From Begonia masoniana (taxonomy: Eukaryota > Streptophyta > Magnoliopsida > Cucurbitales > Begoniaceae), in the NCBI GenBank assembly GCA_022432975.1, contig CM039508.1:21159213-21223212 (forward strand): a stretch of 64,000 nt of DNA. Reading direction: 5' to 3'. How positions within the stretch are numbered: the first letter of the stretch is position 1; each line of letters begins with the position of its first letter. Both the position numbers and the translations under genes were made by a program. Positions 8,972 to 64,000 of this stretch are shown here, piece after piece. The notes below the pieces were generated by a model. It ran no database searches and was not told the origin of the DNA. It saw only the letters and a list, made by a program, of their open reading frames with translations.

Positions 8972-8981
8972 TTTGAGATTC

Positions 8982-18193: not shown

Positions 18194-20490
18194 TGTAACA
18201 CCCCCGAACCCACCATGGCTCGGAGCACTACTTTGCTAACCAAACCCACGTTGAAACATAATTTAAACTAGGCCTAGACTCGCTAATTACCCTTACTCTT
18301 AACCGCTAAGCACCACGGCGTTTTCCCCGAAAATTTCGGCAGAGTAACGCCTGAAAATGGCGCCTCCAAAAATGCTAAGTACCTGCACACAAACCAATTT
18401 TCAACCAGATCCAGAATATTCTTACTCAGCTAATCACTCACTATCCAGCATACAAAATCTCCAATAATAGAAAAATGGAAAACTAAAATACTAACATTCC
18501 CAAATGCAGAAAATCCACAGGTTAGGGCGACCTATCACCCTTAACTTAACTATATACAACAATAAACATTTACAATAACCACCAAAATATTAGACCCCAC
18601 ATCTCCGAAGACCATGGTCGAGACGCCCCGACAACTGCCCGCACCGGCATACCGCGTACATCAACGACTGCGTCCCAATCCTAGCTTTCCTCGAAGCTTT
18701 AACCTGTACTCCTGTCGTCACCTACACCACAGAACACACACACACGTAAGCTTAAGCTTAGCAAGTAATGAAGAACGAATATAAACATTCACAACGCACA
18801 CCACACTCACACAATACTCAAGCAATAACCAACAAACAAACAACACCGACAACCAATATTTGCCGTGCACCGAAGTGCCATATTTGCCGTGCACCGAAGT
18901 GCCAATTTGCCGTGCACCGAAGTGCCATATTTGCCGTGCACCGAAGTGCCAATTTGCCGTGTAATGACCTGGACCCCGTTCCCGCAGGCCCAGGCCACTA
19001 CTCAAGATGCCGTGTATGACCGGACCCCGTTCCCGCAGCGCCAGGCGCACTACTCAAGATTGCCGTGTAATGACCTCGACCCCGTCCCGCAGGCCCAGGT
19101 GCACTACTCAACCACTCACACAACTCTTAGAACGCAACAACTCACCGCACCCAACACGACAACACCAAGCAATTCATTACTCAAACACAAAACCTTTAAA
19201 ACCATGCATTAATCAAACAAACTAAGCAAGCAACTAAACCCAACAACAACCAATATTTCATTGCCACACTACTTAATACCAAACAACACCCGGTATTCAA
19301 TAAAACACAACAAATCAAACAAAACCAAACAAAACAACTAACCAATAATACAAGGCAACCACACCACCCAAAACAATACAGCAACCAAACAAACACACAC
19401 ACTTACCGTTCGGTCTAGGCCCGAAGGCAAAAACAAATATCTCCACTACTTACCTGGCGTCCTAGCCCACTGAGGATGCTCGGTTATCTGTCCACCTACG
19501 GCTCGACCTACGACAAATATTCAAACTTTATTAAACTCAAGGTTACATTCACCAATTACAATGTCAATTAACCCCACTAAGATTAATTTAGACTTGACAT
19601 AACACAATTTGAGGGTTCTCCATTCGAAAACCCGAATTTCACCTAAACGTAAAACTTCGAATTTGCGTAACTTTTGCTACGCTTAACGGAACAACTCGAT
19701 TTCAACGGCTAAACAATTCAACTAATAACCTAGTTTAACATACCAAGAGAAGCTTATAAAACTAATAACCGTTGCTAAGTCAAAAACCCCCAAAACAGGA
19801 ACCGGTTTTTATACTAAAACATCTAAAATTCCAACTCTAACCCAATTTCACCAATCTCCTTCCGCCAATCAGGCACATTTCAACTCAATTAGCCTAATCT
19901 AACTAAAACCTAACTAAACGGGCAACTAATTTGGGTTCGGTAAAAACCGACCGAAACTTCAAACGCGCGTAACTTTTGCGTCGGTTATCGGAATCGAACG
20001 ATTCCAGTGGCCACGTACTCCTCTAATAACTGCCAAAATGAATTTAAAAAGAAACGACCGTAGCTAGGTCAAATTGGCAAAAACCGATTCTGCCCCTAAC
20101 CGGAAATTTCCTCTTTCTGATTTTCCATCAAATTCCACCCAATTCCTCACCAATCGACCACCCATACCCTCAATTAGCATAAACTAACTCAAAATCCCGA
20201 AGCTACAAGCAAAACCCGAAATCCCCAAATTGGAGCCCTCGGTTTTTAGCTCCTCCCGAGCTGCACACTACTCGGCATTCCTTGCCAGCACCGAGCTCAG
20301 CAATTCAACGCCAAGAGCGACCAAAACAGCCGGCGATTGGAGCTCTAGCAGCTCGTCACCATCGGTCCTGAACAGAACCGAAACAGGGGAGGAGAAACTA
20401 CCTGTTTTCGGTCGGTTCTGGCGCGGAGAAAGCCAAACCGAGCTCTGGCCTCAGCTCGTCGGCGTCTGCACGTCTGAACGGTGGCCGGAG
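18194..20490 (-). mobile_element. LTR F: minus-strand LTR inserted in the element K LTR
   Basis: Starts TGTAACACCCCCGAACCCACC after CGGCT; no matching right-hand CGGCT was found, so the U3 side may be lost. Minus-strand signals: acceptor TCGAGCCGTAG|GTGGAC at 19496/19495; a 42-nt micro-exon (19495-19454); donor CCAG|GTAAGT at 19454/19453; acceptor CTGTGGTGTAG|GTGACG at 18722/18721, with TGCTAAGC upstream. From about 19680 its sequence is the reverse complement of 20580-21100, forming a large inverted repeat. The right boundary (20450-20570) cannot be fixed. The open frames at 20230-20699 lie in this LTR pair. Confidence 0.7.
18861..19113. repeat. 23-24-bp x4.5 and 53-bp x3 tandem repeats in LTR F
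   Basis: TGCCGTGCACCGAAGTGCCA starts at 18861, 18885, 18908 and 18932. From 18955 a longer unit (TGCCGTGT, GACC, GGACCCCGTTCCCGCAG, CTACTCAAGA) repeats at 18955, 19008 and 19061. The two blocks share the TGCCGTG start. Both are inside the predicted second intron of LTR F. Confidence 0.9.
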
Positions 20491-22714
20491 TCGTGGTCGC
20501 CGGAGTCTCCCTCTTCTCACCCTTGCTCCTCGCGCTCAGCGTCGGGCACTCGACAGACTACACGTTGAGTTTCTCCCCTGTTTCTTGCTTGGTTGTGGTC
20601 GTGGGTCGCTGAGCTCGATTGGGCTCCGATTGCCGGCCGTTTCTGGTTGCTCTCGGTGTCCAATGGCCGAGCTCGGTGCTGGCATGGATTGCCGAGCAAT
20701 GGGGAGCTCGGATTTGGGGAAAAACCGAGGGTTTAGGTTTTGAAGCTCGGGTTTTCGTTGTGGAATTCTGGGTTTTCTTATTAGATTATGTTAATTGGAT
20801 GTTAGGAGGATAGATTAGTGAGGAATTGAGAGAGTTTTGATGAAAAATCGAAAAAGAAAGATTTTGGGTAAAAGGGGCAGTTCGGGTTTTGCCCTTTTTG
20901 ACCTAGTTCCGGTATTGTTTTAAAATTCCTCTTGGTAGATTTAAAATAGGTTATTAGAGGAGTACGTGGCCGCTGGAATCGTCGATTCCGATAACCGACG
21001 CAAAAGTTATGCATGTTTGAGTTTTGGGTCGGTTTTTGCGAACCCAAATTAGTGGCCCATTTAATTAGGTTTTAGTTAGATTAGGCTAGAAATAGTAATT
21101 TGAGATGTTTCACGAAAATAAGAGTTTAGTTATGCCCGAACGAAATGAGTTAGAATTTTTGAAGAAATTGTCTTAGCTCGGGATTTCGTTTAGCTTTGAA
21201 ATGGATGGTTTAGATTAATACTAATGACGTGCTATGAAATGCCTTAGGTAATCCAAGCTCTTCAAGGACGGTGCTCGGCATAACCAGGACACCAGGTAAG
21301 TGGATGTTAGGTTTCCGGCCCTTAAGGCCCTACATCGTGTCAACGCTAGGCTTTCTGTTTGATGATGATTTTTCTGTAGAGGTGAGTGGGGGGCTTCATG
21401 TCTGGTAGCCTAGGATTTAGCTATTAGTTGGTATTTGATAAAGTTTGTCAAACATCATGTATGTCTATGTATGTTGGTGAATTGTTTGAGATCTGTCGGT
21501 AAATTGTGGATGATATGTGGTCCGAATTACCTCATGCTCATTTTATTTAGAAAAAGTAACGAAAATGTTTTAGCATTATTTTTTCACGTTTAAACGGAGA
21601 AACAGACACGATGTAAAAACTGAAAAATGTAAAGTGTCTGAGGGAATGGTTCACCCTTCAATGTAAATTTGTGGAACGTCCAGAAAACTTATGATATCTG
21701 AGGGAAAGGTTCACCCTCAGATAAAGATTTATTTGTGGAACGTCTAGAGATGGAGAAAACTAATCCCGCCCTCACATTGGGTAGATTAGCATGTATGTAC
21801 CTGAAAGAACTGAATATGTAGATGAAAACACAATGAATGAATATGTATGCTAAACGAATGAAATGAATATGAACAGATGAAACAAACGAAATGATTATTA
21901 CGAAGAAACTGTGAACTGCATATGTAGTACAACTTTTTACAATTCATATAGTGCATTCCTTACTAAGCATTGGCTTAAGTATATGTTGCAGGATGTAGGG
22001 GCAGAAGACAGGTACAGTGAGTTTCTGAGCATGCTTGGATCATGGAACGCAGTTGGAGGAGTACTAACCCATGGCGGCAACCCGGCAATATGGTTAGGGC
22101 GATTCCGACGTGGGTAGTAGGTGTCCTGTTGGTTAGTATGGTGGACGTGTCATGTTTTGGGTAGTTTTACCTGTGTTTTGATTAAAAGAGCAGGAAAATG
22201 TTACGTATTGATCGATTGGTTTTGCTAGAAAATGTAACACCAAGTCAATTTTGATGTATATGTAGTGGTATAGATTGGTTTAGAATGATGTATATGTAGT
22301 TTGTAGTAGATTGTTTAAAATGTGACTTCTGTATTTTGAGATATACTGGAACTGTTGGTATTTGAAATGTTGGTTATTTTAAAAACATGTAAGGTACGCC
22401 TCGATTTTAGAGCGATCCATCAGTTTGTGTCTTTGCTTTTTTCCGAAATTGTAGGTTATATAGTGTTTTGTTTTAAATTGATCTTACTTTAAGTGGTTAC
22501 TTGTTTTAAAAATGGTTTAGTCTAGTTTAAATGTTTAAAATTCAGAAATTTTTTACGCTCAAAAATAGGTGGGTCAATTTGTCTAGGTTCAGTTTATTTT
22601 AGATGTCAGTGAAAAAAACAATTTTTTCGAAAACACATGGGCTTAGGTACAGGTGTAATGTTCAATTAAATCAGGTCCTGTGACGGCCCTACGGGGTTTT
22701 GGGTCGTGACGTTA
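20490..22714 (+). mobile_element. Rest of the element K 5' LTR (arm of an inverted repeat)
   Basis: Plus-strand LTR homologous, in reverse, to LTR F (for example GAGCTCGGTGCTGGC at about 20669 against its complement at about 20285; GAGGAGTACGTGGC at about 20958 against its complement at about 20010). Splice signals: acceptor GCCTTAG|GTAATCC at 21247/21248; a 48-nt micro-exon (21248-21295); donor CCAG|GTAAGT at 21295/21296; block TACTAAGCATTGGCTTAAG at about 21960 and acceptor GGATGTAG|GGGC at 21998/21999. A 62-bp unit (CTGAGGGAA-GGTTCACCCT) occurs twice at about 21636-21755. Ends in degraded GGGTCGTGACGTTA near 22714. Confidence 0.65.
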
Positions 22715-22728
22715 TTGATTAAGACACT

Positions 22729-23377: not shown

Positions 23378-23477
23378 NNNNNNNNNNNNNNNNNNNNNNN
23401 NNNNNNNNNNNNNNNNNNNNNNNNNNNNNNNNNNNNNNNNNNNNNNNNNNNNNNNNNNNNNNNNNNNNNNNNNNNNN
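23378..23477. other. Assembly gap of 100 N
   Basis: Exactly 100 N, the usual placeholder for a gap of unknown size. Sequence on the left is Tekay-like gag; on the right is protease/RT of another gypsy family. Continuity across the gap is therefore not shown. Confidence 0.99.
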
Positions 23478-26720: not shown

Positions 26721-27007
26721 GGTTTTCTAACCTTAATTCACTTGTTTATTTTGGAGGTGTTCATGGAAACAAGAGAATTCAAACTACCCATTTCATCCAT
26801 TGCAATAAATTTTGGAATTCTTCATGATGAAGCTTAAGTGAAAAAACAAGCACAATTTTAAAAGGTTTATTAAACAATCTGACATTGCTAGGTATCAAAT
26901 CCTAGATATGTATTTTGCATACTTGGCGTTCTTAACAATCTCATATAAAAAAATGTCATTAATAAATATTGTACCTAACATCTCAAAGTAATAGGGTGGA
27001 TCAATAA
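26721..27007 (-). other. Probable upstream pol linker of the Athila-like relic
   Basis: Weak minus-strand phrases (FINDIFLYEIVKNAKYAKYI at about 26890-26950) could be the decayed gag-pol linker of the Athila-like element, but I cannot confirm this. The stretch ends where element H inserted. Confidence 0.35.
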
Positions 27008-29388
27008 TGTAACGACCTTTAAACGTAACTCTTGAATCCCCATAGAATATTATTTATTTATTATTTTTTTTTTTAGAAGAGAAGAAAACTTTGGTCAAAA
27101 TCCGTGATGGTTGAAATCGTCGTGAAACTATTTGATAAAACAATATTTAAGTATCAATTAAAATATTAGAAACAATCGGCCGAAGGGACTGAGGGTATAA
27201 AGGTGTAGAATATTTAAATGCCTTAAATTTGAACACATCTACCGCAAAACAGTACCAATTTACATCCACCGCTACACTCCTACCGCCCATCTTCCGAATG
27301 CTTCTACCGAACATATCCACCATTCAACAGTAACCAATTTACCTCCACTGCTACACTCCTACTGCCCATCTTCTGAATGCTTCTACCGAACACATCCACC
27401 GCTCAACAGTAACCAATTTACATCCACCGCTACACTCCTACCGCCCATCTTCCGAATGCTTCTACTGAACACATCCACCGCTCAACAATAACACACAACA
27501 TCTACCACTCAATAGTAACACTCAACATCTACCGATTAACATCTGCCGATAATCGGTTGAAAAATGACACTTCAGTTCTCTACTATCCTAAGTTCTCTAC
27601 TATCCTTCACTTCTCCGGACACAAACACACTACGAACTAACTAAACATCACCATCATTCCTTAACATCTACAACACTCCTGCTCAAATCTACTTACTTCT
27701 TATCCTCTATAGACTTCAAACTTCATTTCTAGAATACTCATATATGTAGGAATATGGACCCAGATGGAATACGCATGGCAAAAGGTTAAAGGACGGAAGA
27801 AAACATTTAGTCTTATAATCCTCTTTAAAAACATAAAAGTACTGAACAAGTCAAATATTTATCATCATTTAAAAAAAAAGTTCTCTTCTACTTATTCTTA
27901 TATATCATTGTCTTATACCATAATAGGCCAGGAGCACCATCCTTTGGTCGAATCACCACTCAGCACAAAATCCACACCATGAGCACCATCCAACAATCGG
28001 ACTTAAGCATTATCTTCAAGAGTGAAGTCCTCACCTGCTGATTCGTCACCTACATCATAAGGTTTAAACTATAAGCCTAATGCTTAGTAAGAAGTGCAAC
28101 ATGTACATGAATGCTCATGGATGCATATTTAATAAAATCATGTTCACATACTTTATTCAGATCGAAGAGTCATGTTTATGTCCTTGTCCTTGTTCTTGTT
28201 CATATCGAGGAAATCATATTCTTGTTCATCGTTTTCATATTAGGGATTAAGGAGGAGTTTGTGCCGAAGGGGGGTAGGCAGTGCGCGTGTACATGGCCCT
28301 TACGGGCAAGAATCATGGTCCATCCCTGGACAGTGACATGGCCAAAACTGCCCCCAACTCTCACTTAATCAGGGTTTCATACATTTCATTTTCTCGTTTC
28401 ATTTATAAGGAGTATGCGTGTAAAACATTTTGTATTTTCGATAAATAAATCATGATGCATGGACATAAACGTGCACAGAACATGAGACCGTTGAAGAAGT
28501 CGTTCACCAGAAAACAAAGCATCCACTATTCCAAACATTGTACTAAAATAGAGAACTACCTAAACATAACCAATCGTCAGAGGCAAATCCGAACCTACTA
28601 CCCTTGTGATGTAGGGCCCTAATGGCCGGAAATCTTAATATACACACTTACTTGGATTCCTTAGCAACAACGTCTTTCCTTCACTTGGAGCCTTTTCCAC
28701 CTAAGACATTTCATGTATTAATGTAAGAAAACAAATCCTAAATAGTCTAAATTCAGGAATGGTAGTTTCCTAACTAAGTATATTTCCTAGAAGTCTAACT
28801 TATTTCATTTCGGCATTGTATCAACCACCTAGTGTGCATAGAAACCCCAGCTAAACAATAATGGAATTCGGGTTAACCCACTACTCGAGCTCCGCCAACG
28901 TTCGTTATTTCTACTCATTATCTACAACAACAAAAAATATTGTGTTATTAACCATTAATACTATGTTACTATAAATTCCTCAGCAAACCCGAATCTCAAG
29001 CTCTAATCTAAAATCAACTCCTAGATAACTAATTAGCAAACACATTGTCCAAATCTTACATCGAGCTTGGAGTATCGGAAAAAATCAGGAGGAAGCTGAT
29101 CGCTGGAGAAAGAACAGAGAAAAGAGCTGAGGGGAGAGAGAGTCGGCTGAAAGAGGAAAGTCGGCTGGTGGAGGTTTTTGTGAGGTTTTAGGATTTCCAT
29201 TTTCTATTTATACACTTAATAAGCTAGGCTTAATTACAAGTTTGCCATCAAACCTAATTTTTATAGAAAGAACTGATTAAACATTGACACCTAAATTTTC
29301 CGCCAAGGAAATATATTTAAACAAAGGTGGCAGTTAATTCTGTTTCCTTAAAAGAAAATTCACCTGTCCGAAGTTATCGGGTGTTACA
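27008..29388 (-). mobile_element. 3' LTR of element H
   Basis: 2381 bp, TGTAACGACC...GGGTGTTACA, following the PPT on the minus strand. Splice signals: donor CTCGAT|GTAAGA at 29060/29059; acceptor GTCTTAG|GTGGAA at 28701/28700; a 49-nt micro-exon (28700-28652); donor CCAA|GTAAGT at 28652/28651 (weakened from CCAG in the partner LTR); acceptor GATGTAG|GTGACG at 28050/28049 with TACTAAGCATTAGGCTTA upstream. TATA-like TATAAATAGAAAATGG on the minus strand at about 29205. No gene inside. Confidence 0.93.
27250..27490. repeat. 79-bp tandem repeat x3 in U5 of the element H LTR
   Basis: CAGTAACCAATTTACATCCA-type starts at about 27250, 27328 and 27407, each followed by GCTACACTCCTACCGCCCAT, CTTCCGAATGCTTCTACCG and CATCCACCGCTC. 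The partner LTR has the same block at about 45620-45870. ACATCTGCCGATAATCGG follows at about 27540, echoing the LTR1 and 61-bp repeat vocabulary. Confidence 0.88.
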
Positions 29389-29400
29389 TCCACCCCTCCT
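29389..29400 (-). other. Polypurine tract (element H)
   Basis: The minus strand reads AGGAGGGGTGGA directly before the 3' LTR start TGTAACACCCG. It is the primer site for plus-strand DNA synthesis and confirms which LTR is 3'. Confidence 0.9.
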
Positions 29401-29429
29401 TAAACAAAATTTTTGTCCTAAAAAATTGA

Positions 29430-31508: not shown

Positions 31509-32557
31509 TGTAACACCCGACAACTTCAGCCAGGTAACTTCATAACTTTATTAACGGTCATAAATATTCAATCTTCACGGTTTAGAGTTTTATACCAAGA
31601 ATAATTAATTTTATGTGGATTTAAACTAGGTTGAGTGGCAGAGTTGTAATAATGGAGGGTGATGACCAATATATAAAGAAAAAGGAAATGTTTTAAACCT
31701 CACTTGAACCACTGTAGCCGACACCTTCCTTTTCGGCGATTTCTTCTCTCCCAAGCTCTTGCTCTCTACTTTCAGCATACTCTCTTCGACGATCGGTTTC
31801 TCTGCCACCACTCGACTACTCTGTGCCCGAGGTATGCAATAGACAATGTAGCTATCTGTTAGTTTGTTAGTCCTGTTTTCTACTCGACATTGGAGTTTTG
31901 AATCTTCCAATGGCCGACTAATAATAAGGACATTTGAAATCTGAGAGTGGGAATGACTTTAGCTATTAAATCTTAGGATAACTTGAGATTAGAACTGTTA
32001 GGATTTTTGTTTTAACTACTGCAATGTAAATGTTTTAGGTGAAGAAGTTTAAAGAGAAAGGAGCTCAAGTGCTAGAAGACCAGGTAAGTGAATGTATTAA
32101 GATTTTCGGCTAATAGAGCCCTACATCGTGGGAGTACTAGGTTGTTTTAGATGTCTAATGTTTACCTTATGATAATGAGCTTGTCTACACTTGAAGGATT
32201 GATGAATGTTGTGAGTTATACTATTTGATGACCTGCTAGCGAATGTGAAGTTGTCTGCTCTGGTATGATCCTTGTCATAGTCTGATGGGTTAAAAGTTCT
32301 CATGTTCATGCATCATGAATGATTCTCAAGCATTAGAAAATGTTTTAATGCATGTTTTCCATGAACAGAATATGTATGTATATATGTATATATATAAGAT
32401 TTATGCAACGTGGACTAAGTGAGGGTTAGGGGCAGTTCGGCGTACGTCACAGTCCAAAGAGGGACATATAAATACGACCCGCAATAGGGAACAAGATCAA
32501 ACTCACTGTCGAACCCCCTTTACCAGCACAAATCCTCTCTTAATCCACACAACTTAT

Positions 32558-38491: not shown

Positions 38492-38492
38492 C

Positions 38493-39259: not shown

Positions 39260-42200
39260 TGTAACAACCAGTACCTTGGTCAGGTATTTTTTTTCCACAA
39301 TTATTTATGGTATGACTTATGCAATTGAGGAATTTTAAATGGAAGTAGGTTTAGTGGCGGAATTGTAATTAAGTCGATTTTATTTAGTATAAGTAGAAAT
39401 TGGAAATGCTAAAACCTCATTTAAACCCTCATGGAGCCGACATTTCCCTCTGGCGATTTCCTCCTTCAAGTAACCGATTTCTCCTCCTCCTTCTTCGACG
39501 ATTCAAAGCTCAGGTGAGGTTTAGGTGATTCACTCATTAAGCTTTGATTAAGGATGATTACTAGTTAGTATTTACGGACTTAGAATCGAACAATGTATAG
39601 AATCCTGTAATGGCATTGGTATAGAATCCTGGACGTTGTTAATGTTGTAGGTTGAGAGTCTAAAATTTATATGAATCTGGTGGTTTAGGCAGCAATGTCA
39701 TTAAGGTTTTGAAAGTTAAGCTCTGTACACTAGGTGCTCGACGAAATGCCTTAGAGGTTAAGCTAGAATCTAGGATGACTTCTTTAGCTAAGATTTTACC
39801 AGCTCTGAGTTTAGATTATTCAAGATATATCTAACATTAAAGCATGAAATGTCTTAGGTGGAGAAAGACTCACGTGAAGGCACGACATAGCTAAGGAGTC
39901 CAGGTAAGTGGGTGTGTTAAGATTCCGGCCATTAGGGCCCTACATCACGAGAGTATTAGGAAACCTGTTATGATGTTATGTTAGAGTTTATGAAGTCGTC
40001 TGCTCTGGTACGATTCTTTCCACTATCTGATGGTTTATGTGCATTCATGTCCCTGCACAATAGCTCGTTTCCAAGAACACGAAAACGTCTTATATACATG
40101 CTTCCTTTTATGAATGAGATGAGAATATGAAAAGAACAAGAACAAGTAAACGATAATTTATATATGTCACTGTCCAGGAATGGACCAAGAACTCTGTCCG
40201 AGAGGGCCATGTACACGCACATAAATGAATGATGAACATGACTTCCCTGACCTGATTAAAGAATGTGAACACGATTTCTACTTAGTGTGCATTTACGAGC
40301 ATTCGTGTATATGTTGCACTCCTTACTAAGCATTAGGCTTATAGTTTAATCCTTATGATGTAGGTGACGAATTCGAAGGTGAGGACCTCAAACCTAATGA
40401 AGAGGTCTAAGTCGGGTTGCTGGAAGGTGCTCACGGCGAGATTTTTGTGGTTGGGAGGCGATTTTGACCGTGAGATATTGCTCCTAGTATAATTTAGTAA
40501 GGTTATGATACTGAAGTATAAGTAAAATAGGTCTTCTTATGACAATGAATACTGGGATTGTCTGACAAAGTTTCGTGTTTAAAGAAGATTTTAAGACTAA
40601 AGATTTATCTGTTTTCCGTAAGTCTTCCGCTACGCATGTATAAGTTTCGTGAGTTGAATGGTTTCCTTTCGAAATGAAATGTAAAAAGAAAGAGTTAAGT
40701 AGTCTGTGGACGCCGGGGTCTGTGGACGAAAGGGTTAAGTAGTCTGTGGACGCTGGAGTCTGTGGACGAAAGGGTTAAGTAGTCTGTGGACGGTGGGGTC
40801 TGTGGACGAAAGGGTTTAGTAGTTTGTGGACGCTGGAGTCTGTGGACGAAAGGGTTAAGTAGTCTGTGGACGCTGGAGTCTGTGGACGAAAGGGTTTAGT
40901 AGTTTGTGGACGCTGGAGTCTGTGGACGAAAGGGTTAAGTAGTCTGTGGACGCTGGAGTCTGTGGACGAAAGGGTTTAGTAGTTTGTGGACGCTGGAGTC
41001 TGTGGACGAAAGGGTTAAGTAGTCTGTGGATGCTGGAGTCTGTGGACGAAAGGGTTCAGTAGTCTATGGACGCTGGAGTCTGTGGACGAAAGGGTTAAGT
41101 TGTCTATGGATGCCGGGGTCTGTAGACGAAAGGGTTAAGTAGTCTGTGGACGCTGGAGTCTGTGGATGAAAGGGTTAAGTAGTCTGTGGACGGTGGGGTC
41201 TGTGGACGAAAGGGTTTAGTAGTTTGTGGACGCTGAAGTCTGTGGACGAAAGGGTTAAGTAGTCTGTGGACGCTGGAGTCTGTGGACGAAAGGGTTAAGT
41301 AGTCTGTGGACGCTGGAGTCTGTGGACGAAAGGGTTAAGTAGTCTGTGGACGCTGGAGTCTGTGGACGAAAGGGTTTAGTAGTTTGTGGACGCTGGAGTC
41401 TGTGGACGAAAGGGTTTAGTAGTTTGTGGACGCTGGAGTCTGTGGACGAAAGGGTTAAGTAGTCTGTGGACGCTGGAGTCTGTGGACGAAAGGGTTTAGT
41501 AGTTTGTGGACGCTGGAGTCTGTGGACGAAAGGGTTAAGTAGTCTGTGGACGCTGGAGTCTGTGGACGAAAGGGTTAAGTAGTCTGTGGACGCTGGAGTC
41601 TGTGGACGAAAGGGTTAAGTAGTCTGTGGACGCTGGAGTCTGTGGACGAAAGGGTTTAGTAGTTTGTGGACGCTGGAGTCTGTGGACGAAAGGGTTTAGT
41701 AGTTTGTGGACGCTGGAGTCTGTGGACGAAAGGGTTTAGTAGTTTGTGGACGCTGGAGTCTGTGGACGAAAGGGTTTAGTAGTTTGTGGACGCTGGAGTC
41801 TGTGGACGAAAGGGTTTAGTAGTTTGTGGACGCTGGAGTCTGTGGACGAAAGGGTTTAGTAGTTTGTGGACGCTGGAGTCTGTGGACGAAAGGGTTTAGT
41901 AGTTTGTGGACGCTGGAGTCTGTGGACGAAAGGGTTTAGTAGTTTGTGGACGCTGGAGTCTGTGGACGAAAGGGTTTAGTAGTTTGTGGACGCTGGAGTC
42001 TGTGGACGAAAGGGTTTAGTAGTTTGTGGACGCTGGAGTCTGTGGACGAAAGGGTTTAGTAGTTTGTGGACGCTGGAGTCTGTGGACGAAAGGGTTAAGT
42101 AGTCTGTGGACGCTGGAGTCTGTGGACGAAAGGGTTAAGTAGTCTGTGGACGCTGGAGTCTGTGGACGAAAGGGTTAAGTAGTCTGTGGACGCTGGAGTC

Positions 42201-45316: not shown

Positions 45317-45390
45317 AGTTGTTGGAGAGTACTCATGTGGTGATTTGTGCTGGAAGGCAGTCTACAGAATTGATTTTAGAATCTGGTTTT

Positions 45391-45402
45391 TCTTTGATAC
45401 CA
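45391..45402 (-). other. Primer-binding site (element H)
   Basis: The minus strand reads TGGTATCAAAGA, initiator tRNA-Met type with small changes, four bases past the end of the 5' LTR. Confidence 0.88.
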
Positions 45403-45406
45403 TAAT

Positions 45407-47746
45407 TGTAACGACCCTTAAACGTAACCCTTGAATCCCCATGGAATATTATTTATTATTATTTTTTTTTTAGAAGAGAAGAAAACTTTGGTCAAAATCC
45501 GTGATGGTTGCTATTTGATAAGACAATATTTAAGTATCAATTAAAATATTAGAAACAATCGGCCGAAGGTACCGAGGGTATAAAAGTGTAGAATATTTAA
45601 ATGCCTTAAATTTGAACACATCTACCGCTCAACAGTACCGATTTACATCCACTGCTACACTTCTACCGCCCATCTTCCGAATGCTTCTACCAAACATATC
45701 CACTGCTCAATAGTAAACAATTTACATCCACCGCTACACTTCTACCGCCCATCTTCCTAAAACTTCTACTGAACACATCCACCGCTCAACAGTAACCAAT
45801 TTACATCCACCGCTACACTCCTACCGCCCATCTTCCGAATGCTTCTACCAAACACACCCACCGCTCAACAATATTACACAACATCTACCGCTCAATAGTA
45901 ACACTCAACATCTACCGATTAACATCTGCCGATAATCGGTTGAAAAAAGACACTTCAGTTCTCTACTATCCTTCACTTCTCTAGACACAAACACACTACG
46001 AACTAACTAAACATCACCATCATTCCTTAACATCTACAACACTCCTGCTCAAATCTACTTACTGCTTATCCTCTATATACTTCAAACTTCATTTCCAAAA
46101 TACTCATATACGTAGGAATATGGACCCGGATGGAATACGCATGGCAAAAAGTTAAAGAATGGAAGAAAACATTTAGTCTTATAATCCTCTTTAAAAACAA
46201 ATAAGTACTGAACAAGTCAAATACTTATCATCATTTAAAAAAAAAGTTCTCTTCTACTAATTCTTCTATATCATTGTGTTATACCATAAAAGGCCAGGAG
46301 CACTATCCTCAGGTCGAATCACCACCCAGCACAAAATCCACACCATGAACACCATCCAACAATCGGACTTAAGCATTATCTTCAAGAGTGAAGTCCTCAC
46401 CTGCTGATTCGTCACCTACATCATAAGGTTTAAACTATAAGCCTAATTCTTAGTAAGGAGTGCAACATGTACATGAATGCTCATGGATGCATATTTAATA
46501 AAATCATGTTTACATTCTTTATTCATATCGAAGAGTCATGTTTATGTCCTTGTTCTTGTTCATATTGAGTAAATTATATTCTTGTTCATCATTTTCATAT
46601 CATGGATTAAGGAGGAGTTTGTGCCGAAGGGGGGTAGGTAGTGCGCGTGTACATGGCCCTTACGGGCAAGAATCATGGTCCATCCTTGGACAGTGACAAG
46701 GCCAAAACCGCCCTCAACTCTCACTTAATCAGGGTTTCATACATTTCATTTTCTCGTTTCATTTATAAGGAGTATGCGTGTAAAACATTTTGTATTTTCG
46801 ATAAATAAATCATGATGCATGGACATAAACGTGCACAGAACATGAGACCGTGGAAGAAGTCGTTCACCAGAAAATAAAGGATCCACTATTCCAAACATTG
46901 TACTAAAACAGAGAACTACCTAAACATAACCAATCATCAGAGGCAAATCCCAACCTACTACCTTTCTGATGTAGGGCCCTAATGGTCGGAAATCTTAATA
47001 CACACTTACCTGGATTCCTTAACAACAACGTCTTTCCTTCACTTGGAGCCTTTTCCACCTAAGACATTTCATGTATTAATGTAAGAAAACGAATCCTAAA
47101 TAGTCTAAATTCAGGAATGGTAGTTTCCTAATTAAGTATATTTCCTAGAAGTCTAACTTATTTCATTTTGGCATTGTATCAACCACCTAGTGTGCATAGA
47201 AACCCCAACTAAACAATAATGGAATTCGGGTTCACCAACTACTCGAGCTCCGCCAACGTTCGTTATTTCTACTCATTATCTACAACAATAAAAAATATTG
47301 TGTTATTAACCATTAATACTATGTTATTATAAATTCCTCAGCAAACCCAAATCTCAAGCTCTAATCTAAAATCAACTCCTAGATAACTAATCAGCAAACA
47401 CATTGTCCAAATCTTACCTCGAGCTTGGAGTATTGGAAGTAATCAGGAGGAAGCTGATCGCTGGAGGAAGAACAGAGAGAAGAGCTGAGGGGAGAGAGAG
47501 TCGGCTGAAAGAGGAAAGTCAGCTGGTGGAGGTTTTTGTGAGGTTTTAGGATTTCCATTTTCTATTTATACACTTAATAAGCTAGGCTTAATTACAAGTT
47601 TGCCACCAAATCTAATTTTTATAGAAAGAACTGATTAAACATTGGCACCTAAATTTTTGGCCAAGGAAATATATTTCAACAAAGGTGGCAGTTAATTCTG
47701 TTTCCTTAAAAGAAAATTCACCTGGTCGAAGTTGTCGGGTGTTACA
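45407..47746 (-). mobile_element. 5' LTR of element H
   Basis: 2340 bp partner of 27008-29388. Minus-strand splice signals: donor CTCGAG|GTAAGA at 47418/47417; acceptor GTCTTAG|GTGGAA at 47059/47058; a 49-nt micro-exon (47058-47010); donor CCAG|GTAAGT at 47010/47009; acceptor GATGTAG|GTGACG at 46416/46415, with the branch block as TACTAAGAATTAGGCTTA. TATA-like TATAAATAGAAAATGG at about 47560. Three 79-bp repeats at about 45620-45870. Nothing coding. Confidence 0.93.
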
Positions 47747-49417: not shown

Positions 49418-50679
49418 TGATATACCTCGAGGGCCTATGACATGCTCTCGATCAAAGGCCATGCACCCGGCTGAATTATTACCTAATAACTTTGTATGTT
49501 TTGCAGGTGAAGTTTCATTTGAAGACCTACAATAGGAACCAACCATCCAAGACATAGAGAAGCCATGCCATGTATTAATCTAGGAGGAAGATTTGACCAA
49601 TGCAAATGAGAGCAAGGATAATGTAGAAGGAGAATTTGTTTTCCCTTTGACAAATCATGTAACTCACCCGATTAGAGAGTGATTTGTGCTCTCAGTTTTC
49701 TTTATGCATTTGTTTGCTATATTTTTCTTTTAGTTTATGGTTGGACATTTGCATTAGTGTTATTATCTATTTAGGTTTTTTTGGAAGAACCAAAGGGATG
49801 CTGGTCACACCAATCTCAAGGTGAAGAAGCACCTTACCCGATTTGGTGAAACCAAGAGTACTCGAGTACACTCCTTTTGGCTGCCCTTCCTCTTTAGGAT
49901 TTATGACCATTTTTTTTGTTTTATGTAAAGCCCTAGCTGCTGCTGGCAAAGCAGAGAGTTATATAGCTCTTGTATGTTTTTGTTGAAGGCAGAACATGTT
50001 GAATGATTAAGTAGAACCATCGGTTCATTTTCTTCTCTCAAACTCTCTCGCCGACAAGGTGAATCCGAGGAGCTGGACTTCTATCCACTAAACCGTGAGA
50101 TTAGTGGTGTTTTTTTGCTTCTTCCTTCTATTCTTTCCCAGTCAAGGGATTGAAAACCACATAGCAAGGTAGCAAATCATCCTCACACGTGCGCGCTAGA
50201 GCATATTCCTCTTGAAGATTATCAAGTCCAAAAAGGTGTTCAAATAGCACCTCTACGACAAGCAGGCCTTCATTTGACTACAACTTTTGATTCCGACCGA
50301 ATTTGTCAAAGATATTTTAAGGGTACCTCATCTGCATATTAACTAAGAACGCTTTAAATATTCATGTTATTTAGATAAGTTTTGAAGAAGATATGTTTTC
50401 TGAAAGCTGAGCATTTTTTGGATAGATAATAGTTTTCTGACCAAGCAGTTTTTGTGACTTGTATCACCTATATCTCATAAACCATAAAGAATTTGACACT
50501 GAAATTTTAAGATAATTTCATACTTATTCCTAGCAAGAATTTATTAAATTTTCAGAGCATAAAAGAGTTATATTGGTTGGAGTCTGCTCAGCCAACATTG
50601 AGTTAACTGAGTAGCAGATTTTTGTTTGTAATTGTCTTGTGTTTGTGTAGCCATTGAAAAAGTATATTGAAGCCTATCA
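49418..50679 (+). mobile_element. 5' LTR of element L
   Basis: 1262 bp, TGATATACCTCGAGGGCC...GAAGCCTATCA, aligned along its length with 55246-56491. Shorter than and unrelated to the Tekay-like LTRs, and without their splice-signal set. Includes AGAGTTATATAGCTCTTG (TATA-like) at about 49952. Frame 49767-49949 is chance. Confidence 0.88.
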
Positions 50680-50681
50680 TT

Positions 50682-53950: not shown

Positions 53951-55257
53951 ACTGAACTAATCACCCATCTTTTTGGCTTTGATTGGATAAAGAACAACTA
54001 TAATGAAGACCCTAATTTCATACCATATTATAGAAAATGCTAGGATAAGACCGAGGGAGACTATCACATGGTTGATAGTTTTCTTTTCAAAGGAAATAAG
54101 TTGTGTGTACCCAGAAGTTATATCCGAGAATCTTTAGTAAAGGAGGCCCATGGTCAGGGATTATCTAGTTATTTTGGCAAGAAAAAGACACTAGACATGC
54201 TTAAGGAACACTTCTAGTGGCCCCACCAAATGCGAGACGTACATCGAGTGTTAGAAATGTGTATCATTTATAAGAAAGCCAATAGCAAATTGCTTCCCGA
54301 AGGACTCCACCTTCCCTTACCCGTTCCTAGTCACCCATAGGTAGAGCTTAGCATGGACTTTGTCTTGGGACTTCCCTGCACGGCCAGGGGTAAAGAAGCA
54401 ATTATGGTGGTTGTGGACAGATTTGCCAAAATGGCACACTTTGTCGCTTGCTCCAAAACAGACAACACCTCCATCATCGCTGAATTGTTTTTTCGAGAGA
54501 TAGTACGTATGCATAGGATCCCTTGATCCATAGTTTCAGACAGGGATACAAAATTTCTAAGTTTCTTTTGTACAACTCTATGGAAAAAGCTGGGCACCAA
54601 GCTACTTTTCAGCACATCATTTCATCCCCAAACGGACAGATAAACGGAATTCGTGAATCATACTTTGGGCACTCTTTTGAGAAGTATTATGGGTAAGAAA
54701 CTAACAAATTGAGATGCTAAGCTCCCTTAAATAGAATTTTATTACAACCGAATCATCCACTCAGCCACTAAAAAGACCCCGTTTGAGGTAGTTTACGGTT
54801 TCAATCCACTCACTCCACTAGACCTCATACCTTTTCCCCAAAAAGATCTTGCCAATCCTATAGGGCCCCGCAAAGCCGAACAGGTCAAGAAGATGCACGA
54901 AAAATATCCAAAAATCTATCCAAAAGAGGAACGATTTGGTACCCAGAGAGTCAACTGAGGCAGAAAGGAAGTTATTTTTAAGGAGGGAGACTTGGTCTGG
55001 CTCCACTTAAGGAAAGAATGTTTTTCCAAACAACGAAGATCTAAACGACTTCCAAGAGCTGATGGCCCTATTAAGATACTCGAGAAGATTAATAATAATG
55101 CTTACAAACTTGAACTACCAGGGGATTACGGCGTATCAGCCATATTTAACGTACATGATCTATCCTCGTATATTGTCAAAACTGACGATCTTAGTATTGA
55201 AGAACCTTTGGATTTGAGGTCAAATTCTCATTCACCCGGAGGGAATTATATGCCTTG
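53951..55257 (+). pseudogene. Element L integrase
   Basis: Scattered frames in family order: zinc module AHGQGLSSYFGKKKTLDMLK, MCIIYKKANS with the CxxC degraded (about 54140-54290), [27 protein letters not shown] (first Asp), [34 protein letters not shown] (second Asp, about 54527-54570), SFHPQTDR in place of HPQTDGQ, then TEFVNHTLGTLLRSIMG. Frame 54992-55258 gives the C-terminal part: HLRKECFSKQRRSKRLPRAD, GPIKILEKINNNAYKLELPG and FNVHDLSSY, ending near the PPT. No chromodomain follows. Stops at several points. Confidence 0.85.
55238..55245 (+). other. Polypurine tract (element L)
   Basis: GGAGGGAA directly before the 3' LTR. Its position sets the LTR start at 55246 and, by alignment, 49418 for the 5' LTR. 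Confidence 0.8.
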
Positions 55258-56491
55258 AGGGCCTTTGACACGCTCCCAATCAAGGGCCATGTACCCGGCC
55301 GAATTATTACCTAACAACTTTGTAAGTTTTGTCGGCGAGTTTCATTTGAAGACCTACAATGGGAACCAACAATCCAAGATACAGAGAAGCCATGCCATGT
55401 ATTATTTTTGGAGGAAGATTTGACCAATGCAAATGTGAGCAAGGATAATGTGGAAGGGGGAATTTGTGTTCCCTTTGACAAATCATGTAACTCACCTGAT
55501 TAGAGAGTGATTTTTGCTCTCGTTTTTCTTTATGCATTTGTTTGCTATATTTTCCTTTTAGTCTATGGTTGGACATTTTCATTAGTGTTATTATCCACTT
55601 AGGTAGGTTGAAAGAACCAAAGGGATGCTGGTCACACCAATCTCAAGGTGAAGAAGCACCTTACTCGATTTGGTTCAACCAAGAGTACCTGAGTACACTC
55701 CTTTTGGCCACCCTTCCTCTTTAGGATTTATGACCATTTTTTTATTTTATGTAAAGCCCTAGCTGCTGCTGGAAAAGCAAAGAGTTATATAGCTCTTGTA
55801 TGTTTTTGTTGAAGGCTGATCATGTTGAATGATTAAGTAGAACCATCGGTTCATTTTCTTCTCTCAAACTCTCTCACCGGCAGGGTGCATCCGAGGAACT
55901 TGACTTCTATCAACTAAACCATGAGATTAGTGGTGTTCTTTTGTTGTTTCCTTCTATTCCTTCCCACTCAAAGGCTTGGAAACCACATAGCAAGGTAGCA
56001 GATCATCCTCACATCCTCTTGAGGAGTATCAAGTCCAAAATGGTGTTCAAACAGCACCTCTACGACCAGCAAGCCTTCATTAAACTACCACTTTTGCTTC
56101 CGACCAAATTTGTCAAAGATATTTTAAGGGTACCTCATCCACATATTAAGTAAGAACTCTTTAAATTTTCATGTTATTTGGATAAGTTTTGAAGATGATA
56201 TGTTTTCTGAAAATTGAGCATTTTTCGATAGATAACAGTTTTCTAACCAAGCAGGTTTTGTGATTTGTATCACCTACATCTCATAAACCATAACGAATTT
56301 GACACTAAAATTTTAAGAGCATTTCATAATTATTCCTAGCAAGAAGTTATCAAAATTTCAGAGCATTTGATAGAAGATTGAAAGAGTTATACTGGTTGGA
56401 GTCTACTCAGCCAACATTGAGTTAGTCGAGTAGCAAATTTTTGTTTGCAATCGTCTTGTGTTTGTGTGAATAGTTATATTGAAGCCTATCA
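55246..56491 (+). mobile_element. 3' LTR of element L
   Basis: 1246 bp ending GAAGCCTATCA, followed by AAGTAC. Its first bases (TTATATGCC) have diverged from TGATATACC in the 5' copy, so the terminal TG is lost. Frames at 55542-56153 are chance. Confidence 0.87.
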
Positions 56492-58843: not shown

Positions 58844-58856
58844 ATTATCCACCTTG

Positions 58857-61508: not shown

Positions 61509-64000
61509 TGTAACACCCGGAAAATTTTGACTACGTGTCTAGATCTAAGTTAGTGATGTATGAGAGTGCTTTGTGAGGGGTTTAGAAGGTTATTAGAAGA
61601 GAAAGGTGATTAGTGGAAAGTTTGACAAGTCAAACCCAATTGTGATTGGTGGAGAGTTTGAGTGTGACTTGTCAATGTGTCAATGTGTGTTAACCAATCA
61701 AATTGTGAAGGTGATGGGAAGAAAAAGTGGTGGTTTAGAGGTGGGTTTGGCGTTGGATTAAAGGTGAAAAGGGGAGGGTTAAATGGTAAATTGACTTGGT
61801 GAATTAAATGAAGGAATAAAAAGAAAAGAAATGGTTTATTTTTCACTCATCTTCCTCTCCTCCATCGTGTCTCTCTCCTTTCCTCCATAGCCAACGACTC
61901 TCTTCCTCCTTTCTTCATTTCTTTAAGTGATTGCAAAGTAAATTTACATGGGTTTTAGTTTATGTGCTATGGGATGAAGTTTGGAAGAGTTTTTAGGGTG
62001 TGTTGGGTGGTTTTAGGGAGAGTTAGAAAACCCTAGGTTAGGGATTCTGAAAATCTGAGTTGAAATGTTAGATTTCTTTCTTATTTTGATGATTTGGTTG
62101 TTGAATGACTTAGTTTAAGTCGTTGGAGTGGTTGGATTGAAGATTGGAAGTGAAAGTGTGAAAAATCGATTTTTACCCTAAAGTGCACCGGTTCTGTTTT
62201 GGCATGTCCGACTTAGACCTTGTATTTGGATGGTTGATTTGAGTGATTCAATGGATAGTAGACGTGTAGAGGTTTCCGAGTTGTGTTGGCACGTCGAAAT
62301 CTGTTGTAAAACGAGGGAGTTATAACTTTTTGAAGTTAGACGGTCAATTTTGGGGTAAAGATTGGGTTGGGGGTTGTGTTATAGTTCTATTAGTTAGGTT
62401 AAGAATTTCATTAGAGTTTGTAAATTTCTAAGTTGATTTCTCATTATTTTTAGGTGATCGAACGTGTGATTTTGTTGGACGGAGTGAACGAGAAAGTATC
62501 GAGCAGCAACCAGGTAAGTAGTGGATGAGTGTTTGTTGCCTTCGTGCCTACACCATAGAACGGTAGGGATTGATTGTTTGTTTGTTATGTTTTGCTTTTG
62601 TTATGCATCGGGTGTCATGCATCATTGTTTTCTAAACTACGAAATCACGAGTTTTTGCATGTTTGAGTGGTGAGGATGATGTGGAAGAAAGATAAGAAGT
62701 GATATGCAACTTGGTCTCGAGCAGAATAGCTTCGTCGGGCAGTTGAGCACCCCGCGTGGGATTCTATTCGAGATGCCCTGTTAATGTACGTAATGCGTCG
62801 TGAGTACGAATTCCTCGACCTGTTCGTGCTTGAAGTGCACAATGAGGATTCTACGATTGATTGGGGGAGATTCGTGTTGGCCATCCTAGACTGTGTTGGG
62901 ACGTGTGCCTCCGTCTAGCTCCGTGGATCAAGGCGTGGCCGTCCTGGACTGTGTGGGGGCGTGTGCCTACTTGATTCACCTGAAAGTGAAAGATAATTGC
63001 AACCGAAATGAAAAGAAAGCAACAGAGTGTGTAGAAACTGCATGTTAGGGTTGAGTCGAGCATTTAGTGTGTTGTTGTGCATTATTTCCCTACTTGCTAA
63101 GCATTAGGCTTATCTTTTTGTGTTCTGTGGTGTAGGTGACGAGTGTTATACAGGTGAGGTCGATGAGACAGCTCAGGATTAGGCCACAGTCGGAGGAGTA
63201 CGGAGTCCGCCGGTGCAGGCTATTGTCGGGGCGTTTGGACCACTGTGCCTCGGGTAGTGTGGGAGGTGAACATTTTGATAGATGGTTGTTTTCGCGTTCG
63301 TAATGTTTTTGTATGTTGGAAGTAAGATAGAACAAGTGGTGAACGGTTTGTTATAAAGGTTTTAGTACCGGTTGTATAGTTTCGTGGTAAATGATTTTAT
63401 TATGTGTGTCGTTTTGGTTGAAACTATTTTTGTAATGGTTGTTAGTGTTTGGGGTTTGAAATAGTATATTTTGCTGTAAATTTTCAGGTTTTGGTTTAAA
63501 GAAATTTAGGCGTTACGCCGCCCGTTTTGGTTTTAAAATAACTAACGTCGGGTTAAATTTTCTATTTTTGTATTTCTCCGTTTGAAGTCGATTTTCCAAA
63601 ATTTTTATGGGCTTTGAAGGTTTAGGTGTCGGGAAGGTATGTTTAAATTTTCGGAATTTTTGGAGGTGTTTTAGTCGTGGAAAAAATGAAGGAAGAGAAG
63701 GTAAGTCAAAAGTCGGGGAAAAAGTAAAGTTTTTGGGCGTTTTGGGGGCAAAAACCCGAGGAGGTGGCGAGTGGACGCCGTGGGGAGGCGAGCAATCGCC
63801 TCTGGTGCGATTTTTGGCGAAAACGGCAGAGAAGGTGGCGAGTAATCGCCACCGGGAGGCGAGTAATCGCCTCCGACACAGGCCAGGCGCGCAAGGGCGC
63901 GCATCAGGCGCGCTCTGTGCGCGCGCCAGGGGCGCGTGGGCGCCGCGCGCGCGCACCTCCTTGTTTTTTTTTTAATTTTTTTTTAAAAACTTCATTTTTC
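61509..64000 (+). mobile_element. LTR M: plus-strand long LTR running off the right edge
   Basis: Starts TGTAACACCCGGAAAATTTT, like the element K LTR. A CT-rich tract (CTTCCTCTCCTCCATCGTGT) at about 61849 marks the presumed transcription start region. Splice signals: acceptor TTATTTTTAG|GTGATC at 62453/62454; a 60-nt micro-exon (62454-62513); donor CCAG|GTAAGT at 62513/62514; block TGCTAAGCATTAGGCTTATC at about 63095, a clear pyrimidine tract, and acceptor CTGTGGTGTAG|GTGACG at 63135/63136. A 60-bp unit (GGCC-TCCTGGACTGTG-GGGCGTGTGCC) is doubled at about 62880-62970. At least 2492 bp. Frames at 62645-63335 and 63513-63975 are chance frames inside it. Confidence 0.88.
63765..63960. repeat. GC-rich hairpin cluster in LTR M
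   Basis: GGTGGCGAGTAATCGCCACC (about 63834-63853) and GGAGGCGAGTAATCGCCTCC (about 63855-63874) are perfect or near-perfect hairpins, preceded by a GGAGGCGAGCAATCGCCTC copy at about 63783. A run of GCGCGC words (63885-63955) follows. Same relative LTR position as the hairpins in LTR A and LTR B, with unrelated stems. Confidence 0.88.

What the first reader, a model, noticed from the sequence alone, without database searches (positions are those of the whole stretch)
18722..63135. Conserved multi-intron splice architecture inside diverged long LTRs
At least nine LTRs (1, A, B, F, K, I, J, both H, M) show, on their own sense strand and in the same order, an acceptor of the form YTTAG|GTG, a micro-exon of 42-60 nt, a near-perfect donor (AG|GTAAGT in all but the left H copy) and, 460-730 nt later, TACTAAGCATTAGGCTTA, a pyrimidine-containing tract and TGTAG|GTGACG. 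Micro-exons: 1860-1905, 7383-7437, 12323-12378, 19454-19495, 21248-21295, 28652-28700, 32039-32083, 39858-39903, 47010-47058, 62454-62513. The LTR sequence around them has diverged widely and repeats have been gained or lost, yet these signals persist. I infer that the long leader is spliced to shorten the path from cap to gag, while unspliced RNA is the genome. Spliced gag RNA is known for the copia element BARE of barley; I am not aware of a multi-exon leader of this kind in chromoviruses.
Basis: partly seen in the sequence, partly recalled or inferred. Interest (0 to 1): 0.88.

Follow-up and report, generated by a model that had tools for sequence, protein, structure and literature searches.

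The report
Spliced leader inside retrotransposon LTRs
The long terminal repeats of an abundant retrotransposon family in this genome carry conserved splice-site signals that are predicted to trim a 2.3-kb RNA leader with more than 50 upstream start codons to about 240-300 bases, and 50 places in the genome carry the exact junction expected when the first intron is missing, which is likely the trace of spliced RNA copied back into DNA.

Summary
Ten LTRs carry a 42-60 nt micro-exon, AG before it, AG/GTAAGT after it in nine and AA/GTAAGT in one. Nine element types are only 37-61% identical there, yet AGGTAAGT is their one 8-base invariant block. In 67 LTRs all eight donor columns are among the 12 most conserved of 803. 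Predicted exons avoid ATG (24 representative exon-2 sequences: 1 found, 9.5 expected).

The architecture is larger than reported: a pyrimidine-rich exon 1, a 15-nt exon 3, and an exon 4 plus a 60-72 nt intron between PBS and gag. In element A four introns would turn 2338 nt with 54 upstream ATGs into 242 nt with none (start site assumed).

The genome has 50 exact exon1|exon2 junctions (2584 unspliced counterparts) but no exon2|exon3 junction by two patterns, against 9173 unspliced exon-2 donors. RNA spliced at intron 1 was likely reverse-transcribed, RNA lacking intron 2 apparently not. A packaging role is inferred. No RNA reads were available; a DNA deletion between AGGT repeats could imitate the junction.

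The parts
11..2553 (-). LTR 1 (2543 nt); TATA box at about 2391, exon 1 predicted about 2359-2230
1860..1905 (-). LTR 1 micro-exon 2 (46 nt)
1823..1835 (-). LTR 1 hairpin HP1 GGCC-ACTAG-GGCC in intron 2
   Evidence: position counted by hand
1224..1238 (-). LTR 1 hairpin HP2 TAAGC-ATTAG-GCTTA upstream of exon 3
1188..1202 (-). LTR 1 exon 3 (15 nt)
5757..8220 (-). LTR A (2464 nt), 5' LTR followed by PBS (5752) and gag; exon 1 ends 7806
7383..7427 (-).
6819..6833 (-). LTR A exon 3 (15 nt)
5670..5713 (-). Element A exon 4 (44 nt), just after the PBS
5606..5669 (-). Element A intron 4 (64 nt, 80% A+T), just upstream of gag ATG (5592)
9044..9088 (-). Element X exon 4 (45 nt) with an ATG that is in frame with gag if intron 4 is removed
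8982..9043 (-). Element X intron 4 (62 nt); gag ATG at 8972
10473..10487 (-). LTR piece X exon 3 (15 nt), HP2 at 10510-10524
10784..14165 (-). LTR B (3382 nt); exon 1 predicted to end at 13459
12323..12378 (-). LTR B micro-exon 2 (56 nt)
11763..11777 (-). LTR B exon 3; acceptor mutated to TGTAT
14234..14295 (+). Intron 4 of the + strand gag element (62 nt)
19454..19495 (-). LTR F micro-exon 2 (42 nt)
18704..18721 (-). LTR F exon 3 (18 nt; following donor weak, GTTAAA)
21248..21295 (+). LTR K micro-exon 2 (48 nt)
21999..22011 (+). LTR K exon 3 (13 nt)
27004..29388 (-). LTR H left (3' LTR), 93.6% identical to the right H LTR
28652..28700 (-). LTR H left micro-exon 2 (49 nt, donor AA/GTAAGT)
28035..28049 (-). 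LTR H left exon 3; HP2 at 28072-28086
32039..32083 (+). LTR J micro-exon 2 (45 nt); TATA about 31670, exon 1 ends about 31831; no exon 3 found
39858..39903 (+). LTR I micro-exon 2 (46 nt); exon 1 ends about 39513
40364..40378 (+). LTR I exon 3 (15 nt); HP2 at 40327-40341
45402..47746 (-). LTR H right (5' LTR): TATA 47570, predicted start about 47538, exon 1 ends 47418
47010..47058 (-). LTR H right micro-exon 2 (49 nt)
46401..46415 (-). LTR H right exon 3 (15 nt); its HP2 is disrupted
45317..45361 (-). Element H exon 4; its donor has decayed to GTAGGT; gag ATG 45243
62454..62513 (+). LTR M micro-exon 2 (60 nt)
63136..63153 (+). LTR M exon 3 (18 nt); HP2 at 63098-63112

Best explanation
The LTRs encode a leader with conserved splice-site signals that is likely spliced through up to four introns, which would join a capped pyrimidine-rich exon 1, a 42-60 nt exon 2, a 13-18 nt exon 3 and a ~45 nt exon 4 to gag and so remove almost all upstream ATGs. 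Shown: the conserved sites, the ATG-poor exons, two covarying hairpins in intron 2, and genomic places with the exact exon1|exon2 junction. Inferred: RNA that loses introns 2-4 is the gag(-pol) messenger and cannot be copied, because intron 3 as predicted removes the PBS. RNA that keeps intron 2 is the genome. Splicing of intron 1 alone is compatible with packaging and leaves intron-1-less LTRs: both LTRs of a new copy take their R-U5 from the 5' end of the RNA, so both lose the intron.
For: (1) Window: 9 sites fit acceptor+exon+donor, all LTR micro-exons; shuffles mean 0.03. (2) Nine element types, 37-61% pairwise identity; AGGTAAGT is the only 8-column invariant block. (3) Of 60 genome LTRs chosen by a different motif, 57 have the post-donor block; 55 of 57 have GTAAGT and 52 of 57 AGGTAAGT before it. 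All eight donor columns rank in the top 12 of 803. (4) Exon 3: TGTAGG in 55 of 60, AGGTRAG in 54 of 60. (5) Intron 4 is intact in 15 of 18 PBS-selected records (13 of 15 distinct regions); over the loci matched it is 60-72 nt and 70-82% A+T. (6) ATG: exon 2, 24 representatives, 1 vs 9.5 expected, 0 of 2000 shuffles as low; exon 1, last 110 nt of 42 LTRs, 5 vs 33 by mononucleotide shuffles; introns 1 and 2 as a whole are not depleted. (7) AG is nearly absent for 30 nt before the exon-2 acceptor; T is 44% there vs 19% in the exon. (8) 50 exon1|exon2 junctions with 11 different exon-1 ends, backward control 0. With the exon-1 end CACACCCGAG, 24 of 30 gapped matches are the exact junction. Eight same-strand pairs lie a median 6938 apart vs 7184 for 21 unspliced pairs. 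(9) Of 6 intact loci with an ATG in exon 4, 5 are in gag's frame once intron 4 is removed; unspliced, that frame meets the TAA of GTAAGT in all 6.
Against: No RNA data. Junction searches for exon2|exon3 (two patterns) and exon4|gag (one pattern) found 0. The exon1|exon2 junction is also what a DNA deletion between the AGGT at each end of intron 1 would leave. The exon-4 acceptor (TTCTGYAG after the PBS) is missing in L065, L072 and L074 and its use is a guess. Exon 1 was located by a rule that demands AGGT, so its GT is not independent evidence, and 10 of 64 LTRs gave no call. The PBS-chosen set hardly tests exon 2: the block was found in 2 of 15 regions, both with AGGTAAGT; in most others the piece held may be too short, but L098, L100 and L103 (1.85-1.9 kb held) show no AGGTAAGT at all. 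ATG is also scarce in the hairpin block 20-40 nt after the donor and in some bins of intron 1.
Confidence: 0.84

Rival explanations
1. Splicing occurs, but its use is not to shorten the leader: introns near the promoter raise expression (intron-mediated enhancement) or make the RNA look like a normal host mRNA and so escape silencing or early polyadenylation.
For: The introns lie close to the predicted start; plant 5' UTR introns are known to raise expression (recalled). Same sequence evidence as the main reading.
Against: It does not by itself explain why predicted exons avoid ATG, nor why intron-2-less junctions were not found while intron-1-less ones were.
Confidence: 0.3
2. The sites are not spliced: GTAAGT blocks recruit U1 snRNP to suppress premature polyadenylation in the 5' LTR, or the blocks are other RNA/DNA signals that resemble splice sites.
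For: GTAAGT is among the most constant elements; the hairpin and CCTAC block beside it are about as constant and are not splice signals.
Against: Acceptors with an AG exclusion zone, ATG avoidance bounded by the exon at its 5' end, and 50 exact exon1|exon2 junctions.
Confidence: 0.08
3. The 50 exon1|exon2 junctions are DNA deletions between the AGGT repeats at the intron ends, later amplified, and say nothing about splicing.
For: AG/GT stands at both ends of intron 1, so deletion by 4-base homology gives the same letters; 24 of the 50 places share one exon-1 end, so amplification is likely in part.
Against: 11 exon-1 end variants show the same junction; among gapped matches for one end, no near miss except one place lacking GT; intron 2 has the same AG/GT at both ends and a larger pool (9173 exact donors), yet 0 junctions.
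Confidence: 0.15
4. Simple shared ancestry: the LTRs are too young to have lost the motifs.
For: Some loci are near-identical copies of one subfamily.
Against: 37-61% identity around the sites between the nine window types; 24 exon-2 clusters below 75% similarity, all read from LTRs with the donor.
Confidence: 0.02

Closest known systems
BARE1 of barley (Ty1/copia), spliced subgenomic gag RNA
   Same: Separate RNA pools for translation and replication; U-rich facultative intron (PMC3735527, passages seen)
   Different: One 104-nt intron at the end of gag that creates a stop; here the sites lie in the untranslated leader, mostly inside the LTR
Ogre (Ty3/gypsy, Tat) intron; EVADE (Ty1/copia) short-GAG splicing
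   Same: Partly spliced plant LTR retrotransposon RNA (PMC6317226 and PMC12786077, passages seen)
   Different: Introns between or within coding domains; [quoted passage not shown]
CRR centromeric retrotransposon splicing
   Same: A Ty3/gypsy element with spliced RNA (mentioned in PMC3735527, passage seen; that CRR is a chromovirus is recalled)
   Different: Described there as removing rt to create two ORFs, not leader introns
Tekay/Del chromoviruses with long LTRs, e.g. Bongo of beet
   Same: LTRs of about 2.6-3.0 kb in most Bongo LTRs listed (PMC3605345, passages seen); LTR lengths here 2.3-3.4 kb
   Different: That paper's main text has no occurrence of 'splic'. In sunflower, Tekay elements were absent from the highly expressed set (PMC7730604, passages seen), so their RNA was not examined there
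Retroviruses with the major splice donor upstream of the packaging signal (HIV, MLV) or inside R (HTLV-1, foamy virus)
   Same: Hairpins just downstream of a donor, kept only in unspliced RNA (recalled)
   Different: Acceptors and whole micro-exons also lie inside the LTR here; packaging function untested

Membership tests
Tekay/Del chromovirus (Ty3/gypsy) | Long LTRs, TG...CA, with a tRNA-iMet type PBS just downstream | tested here: met
   Four LTRs measured (L1, A, B, H: 2345-3382 nt) beginning TGTAAC and ending TTACA; PBS TGGTATCARAGM after A, X, H. The tRNA assignment is recalled.
Tekay/Del chromovirus (Ty3/gypsy) | Ty3/gypsy gag, RT, RNase H, integrase | tested here: met
   Pfam Retrotrans_gag, RVT_1, RT_RNaseH, Integrase_H2C2, SH3_Tf2-1 above cut-off in pieces of several elements; copies are broken
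Tekay/Del chromovirus (Ty3/gypsy) | Chromodomain after integrase | tested here: inconclusive
   Pfam Chromo E 0.03, 14.7 bits, below its cut-off of 25.1
Tekay/Del chromovirus (Ty3/gypsy) | Place in an RT-RH-INT tree | not tested
   No reference set at hand
Spliced plant LTR retrotransposon (BARE/Ogre kind) | Conserved donor and acceptor sites and U-rich introns | tested here: met
Spliced plant LTR retrotransposon (BARE/Ogre kind) | Spliced RNA seen in cDNA | not testable with these tools
   No RNA data; 50 genomic exon1|exon2 junctions are indirect
Retroviral-type packaging signal downstream of a donor | Conserved, covarying RNA hairpins kept only in unspliced RNA | tested here: met
   HP1 fully paired in 50 of 64 (20 shuffle sets 3-13), two double-change stem types; HP2 stem of 5 bp or more in 19 of 20 sequences used (shuffles mean 3.3, max 9) with stems TAAGC/GCTTA, TGAGC/GCTCA, TGAGAT/ATCTCA. 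That they lie in RNA that is spliced is inferred.
Retroviral-type packaging signal downstream of a donor | Needed for RNA packaging | not testable with these tools
   -

The most novel reading that the evidence does not exclude
A plant chromovirus sorts its RNA by splicing inside its own LTR: intron 2 is a removable packaging and reverse-transcription passport made of two hairpins, HP1 and HP2, that share a NYTAG-type loop in the main subfamilies. RNAs that lose it become five-exon, nearly ATG-free gag messengers; RNAs that keep it become genomes even if intron 1 has gone. The result is a retrovirus-like switch built from micro-exons in an element family present in thousands of copies.
Probability: 0.4. 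Interest if true: 0.92.

Novelty: new variant of a known kind. Interest (0 to 1): 0.82.

Why it matters
How one retrotransposon RNA is divided between translation and replication is open for most plant elements (my judgement), and long LTRs with dozens of upstream ATGs need an explanation. A multi-intron leader inside the LTR, with junctions left in the genome, would explain how gag is reached, give a ready RNA-seq test in plants with such elements, and put candidate packaging hairpins on the map. LTR-derived exons of 15-60 nt could also enter host transcripts.

Tried and rejected
Chance and simple shared ancestry (rejected). Coding micro-exon: exon-2 lengths leave remainders 0, 1 and 2 on division by 3 in 25, 30 and 9 of 64, so no conserved frame. 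The 18-mer as a plain branch point: it is a hairpin whose stem is rebuilt in other subfamilies. CTRAY branch motifs are not clearly enriched before the exon-2 acceptor; the looser YTNAY motif is (29 in the -40 bin vs 3-9 elsewhere; 22 of the 24 representatives, L040 and L054 dropped because their acceptor is lost), but that stretch is T-rich anyway. The first exon1|exon2 pattern gave 80 places; 60 of them, ending TAG, may be ordinary acceptors (ATGCTCTAG), so only the CGAG-type pattern is used. Related sequence elsewhere: 5 stretches in viral contigs and 16 in prokaryote genomes hold the 16-mer; none of their 22 hits has the exon-3 signals after it, so they are chance. One protein search timed out; another gave one hit, in a record called a bacterium. 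Papers: ten answered searches (one search failed on a sign) in open-licence PMC only; for five papers I saw passages, for the rest listings. None of this showed a leader intron in an LTR of a chromovirus; that is absence in what I saw, not in print.


Full report
What was checked. Nine of ten donors are AG/GTAAGT and the left H copy has AA/GTAAGT. A pattern of acceptor, exon length and donor fits 9 sites, all of them these exons, against a mean of 0.03 in 200 dinucleotide shuffles.

Elements. The window is a nest of Ty3/gypsy elements (Pfam gag, RT, RNase H, integrase) with LTRs of 2345-3382 nt (L1, A, B, H measured) and a PBS TGGTATCARAGM. H is one element with both LTRs (27004-29388 and 45402-47746, 93.6%), between which I and J appear to have been inserted. 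A chromodomain gives only a weak match, and no tree was built, so 'Tekay-like' rests on LTR length, PBS and recollection.

Conservation in the window. Nine element types (H1 left out as twin of H2) align at 37-61% identity from 250 nt before the exon to 200 nt after it. Of 446 well-filled columns 24 are invariant; eight are the contiguous AGGTAAGT and six lie in a CCTA-A-C block about 40 nt into the intron.

Conservation in the genome. The window lies in a 795-Mb assembly of unknown name. The 18-mer near exon 3 has 13,097 exact copies, its backward control none. I fetched 60 LTRs chosen only by that 18-mer, all from contig C1. A profile of the block after the donor, built without the donor, finds 57 of 60. 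Of these 57, 55 have GTAAGT and 52 AGGTAAGT directly before it (L032 and L034 lack it and were left out of later exon-2 counts). In an alignment of 67 LTRs (10 window, 57 genome; effective number 44.7) the eight donor columns are all among the 12 most conserved of 803, and the acceptor A and G rank 18 and 26. Caveats: rows were placed by the neighbouring block, and the window rows were chosen by their donors.

Exon 1. After a pyrimidine-rich stretch (69% in the last 110 nt) many LTRs have an end such as CTCTAG/GTAAG or CYCGAG/GTATG, mostly 200-470 nt before exon 2. The search rule required AGGT, so the GT is not evidence; 54 of 64 LTRs gave a call and 42 of them are GTA or GTGAG. The exon-1 donor columns are only moderately conserved in the alignment (0.80 and 0.77 for G and T).

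Exon 3, exon 4, intron 4. Exon 3 is TGTAG/G...AG/GTRAG, 15 nt in 47 of 49 cases found among 60 loci; 11 of 60 do not fit the strict pattern. Loci chosen only by LTR end plus PBS (18 records, 15 distinct regions, since L095/L098 and L096/L099 are the same places and L090/L091 overlap) show TTCTGYAG after the PBS in 18 of 18 records and CT/GTAAGT in 16 of 18; the complete order exon 4, intron 4, gag ATG is found in 15 of 18 records, 13 of 15 regions. Intron 4 is 60-72 nt long with 44-58% T. Where exon 4 holds an ATG in an intact locus, it is in frame with gag after removal of intron 4 in 5 of 6 (L102, L104, L107, L057 and window X; L103 is not), while the unspliced frame stops at the TAA of the donor in all 6. 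The exon-4 acceptor is missing in L065, L072 and L074, and the intron-4 donor is lost in H, L085, L090 and L091. In this PBS-chosen set exon 2 could hardly be tested: its block was found in 2 of 15 regions, both with AGGTAAGT; L094 and L101 have AGGTAAGT at a fitting distance; L098, L100 and L103, with 1.85-1.9 kb held, have none.

Start-codon avoidance. In 64 exon-2 sequences ATG occurs 6 times against 24.2 in dinucleotide shuffles (59.4 by mononucleotide); in 24 representatives below 75% similarity, once against 9.5, and none of 2000 shuffles is that low. Other words of the same letters are common in the same exons (AGT 83, TGA 70, GAT 30, TAG 26, GTA 25). ATG density is 0-5 per kb inside the exon and 73-80 per kb in the 20 nt before it, but it is also low in some bins of intron 1 (1.6 per kb at -40 to -30) and zero in the hairpin block 20-40 nt after the donor. 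Exon 1 has 5 against 33 expected (mononucleotide); intron 1 has 358 against 320. The first 394 nt of intron 2 after the donor have 1289 against 537. In element H the leader falls from 2295 nt with 71 ATGs to 303 nt with 4 when introns 1-3 are removed (its intron-4 donor is decayed); in element A from 2338 nt with 54 to 242 nt with none (the start of A was assumed 125 nt before its exon-1 donor).

Acceptor quality. AG is almost absent between -30 and the acceptor (0.004-0.016 per position over 62 LTRs, against 0.08-0.14 further up), and the last 60 nt of intron 1 have 44% T against 19% in the exon.

Traces of splicing. If spliced RNA is copied back, LTRs without the intron should exist. The junction YYRYRCYCGAG|GTGAAGAAG occurs 50 times, its backward control none, with 11 different exon-1 ends, 24 of the 50 sharing one; the unspliced counterpart occurs 2584 times, so about 2%. 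A gapped pattern for the commonest exon-1 end gave 30 places: 24 the exact junction, 1 lacking GT, 5 copies of an unrelated string. Eight same-strand pairs lie 6.6-7.5 kb apart, median 6938 against 7184 for 21 unspliced pairs from the first 100 listed places (one-sided U test P 0.008), as expected if both LTRs of an element are shorter; the shift of about 246 is somewhat less than the usual intron-1 length of about 325 in this type. Both LTRs of a new copy take R-U5 from the 5' end of the RNA (established), so this also suggests that exon 1 to exon 2 lies downstream of the cap. No exon2|exon3 junction was found with two patterns against 9173 exact unspliced exon-2 donors, and no exon4|gag junction with one. 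Exon3|exon4, exon1|exon3 and exon1|exon2 of the CTAG-type subfamilies were not searched specifically. A DNA deletion between the AGGT at both intron ends would give the same letters; that intron 2 has the same ends and no such products argues against it. The surroundings of the 50 places were not read.

Hairpins in intron 2. HP1, starting about 20-26 nt after the donor, is GGCC-N4/5-GGCC before (C)TAC. It is fully paired in 50 of 64 (20 shuffle sets 3-13); GGCT/AGCC (5) and GGTC/GACC (4) are double changes that keep the stem; 14 of 64 have a mismatch. Among 20 copies, 10 from the window and 10 of the 13 PBS-selected records in which one search found exon 3 (repeats L091, L099, L105 dropped; 5 of 18 records gave none), 19 have 5 bp or more (shuffles mean 3.3, maximum 9); H2 does not. 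Most HP1 loops and the main HP2 loop are of a NYTAG/NNTAR type.

Mechanism. Shown: conserved sites, ATG-poor exons, covarying hairpins, junction places. Inferred: the cap site, actual splicing of introns 2-4, use of the exon-4 acceptor, messenger versus genome roles, and packaging by HP1/HP2. HP2 could instead loop out the stretch between branch point and acceptor.

Novelty. Splicing of plant LTR retrotransposon RNA is known (BARE1, Ogre, EVADE, Bagy2 env, CRR; passages of PMC3735527, PMC12786077, PMC6317226). [quoted passage not shown] In the searches named in Tried and rejected I found no leader introns inside chromovirus LTRs. I file it as a new variant of a known kind.

Noticed in passing
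32557-38493: LTR J contains a 26-bp array (114 copies) followed by a 61-bp array (48 copies, near identical); the 61-bp unit resembles LTR 1 sequence.
   Followed up: partly
40688-43992: LTR I contains about 83 copies of a 40-bp unit.
   Followed up: no
18194-22011: LTRs F and K stand head to head with inverted similarity (19890-20343 vs 20623-21088, 76%); both may have lost their 5' ends.
   Followed up: partly
49420-50679 and 55248-56491: A different LTR-like pair (87.6% identical) enclosing a reading frame without Pfam match and an RNase H frame; not examined for splice signals.
   Followed up: no
G000:C1:35903918 and 35910693: A same-strand pair 6.8 kb apart with a spliced exon1|exon2 junction at one place and an unspliced one at the other.
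   Followed up: no
L090, L091: Two PBS copies 121 nt apart, with the intron-4 donor lost in both.
   Followed up: no
window 8216-8971 (-): The only protein hit for this gag (73% identity) is a short record labelled as a bacterium, presumably plant DNA in that sample.
   Followed up: no
23378-23477: A run of 100 N in the window.
   Followed up: no
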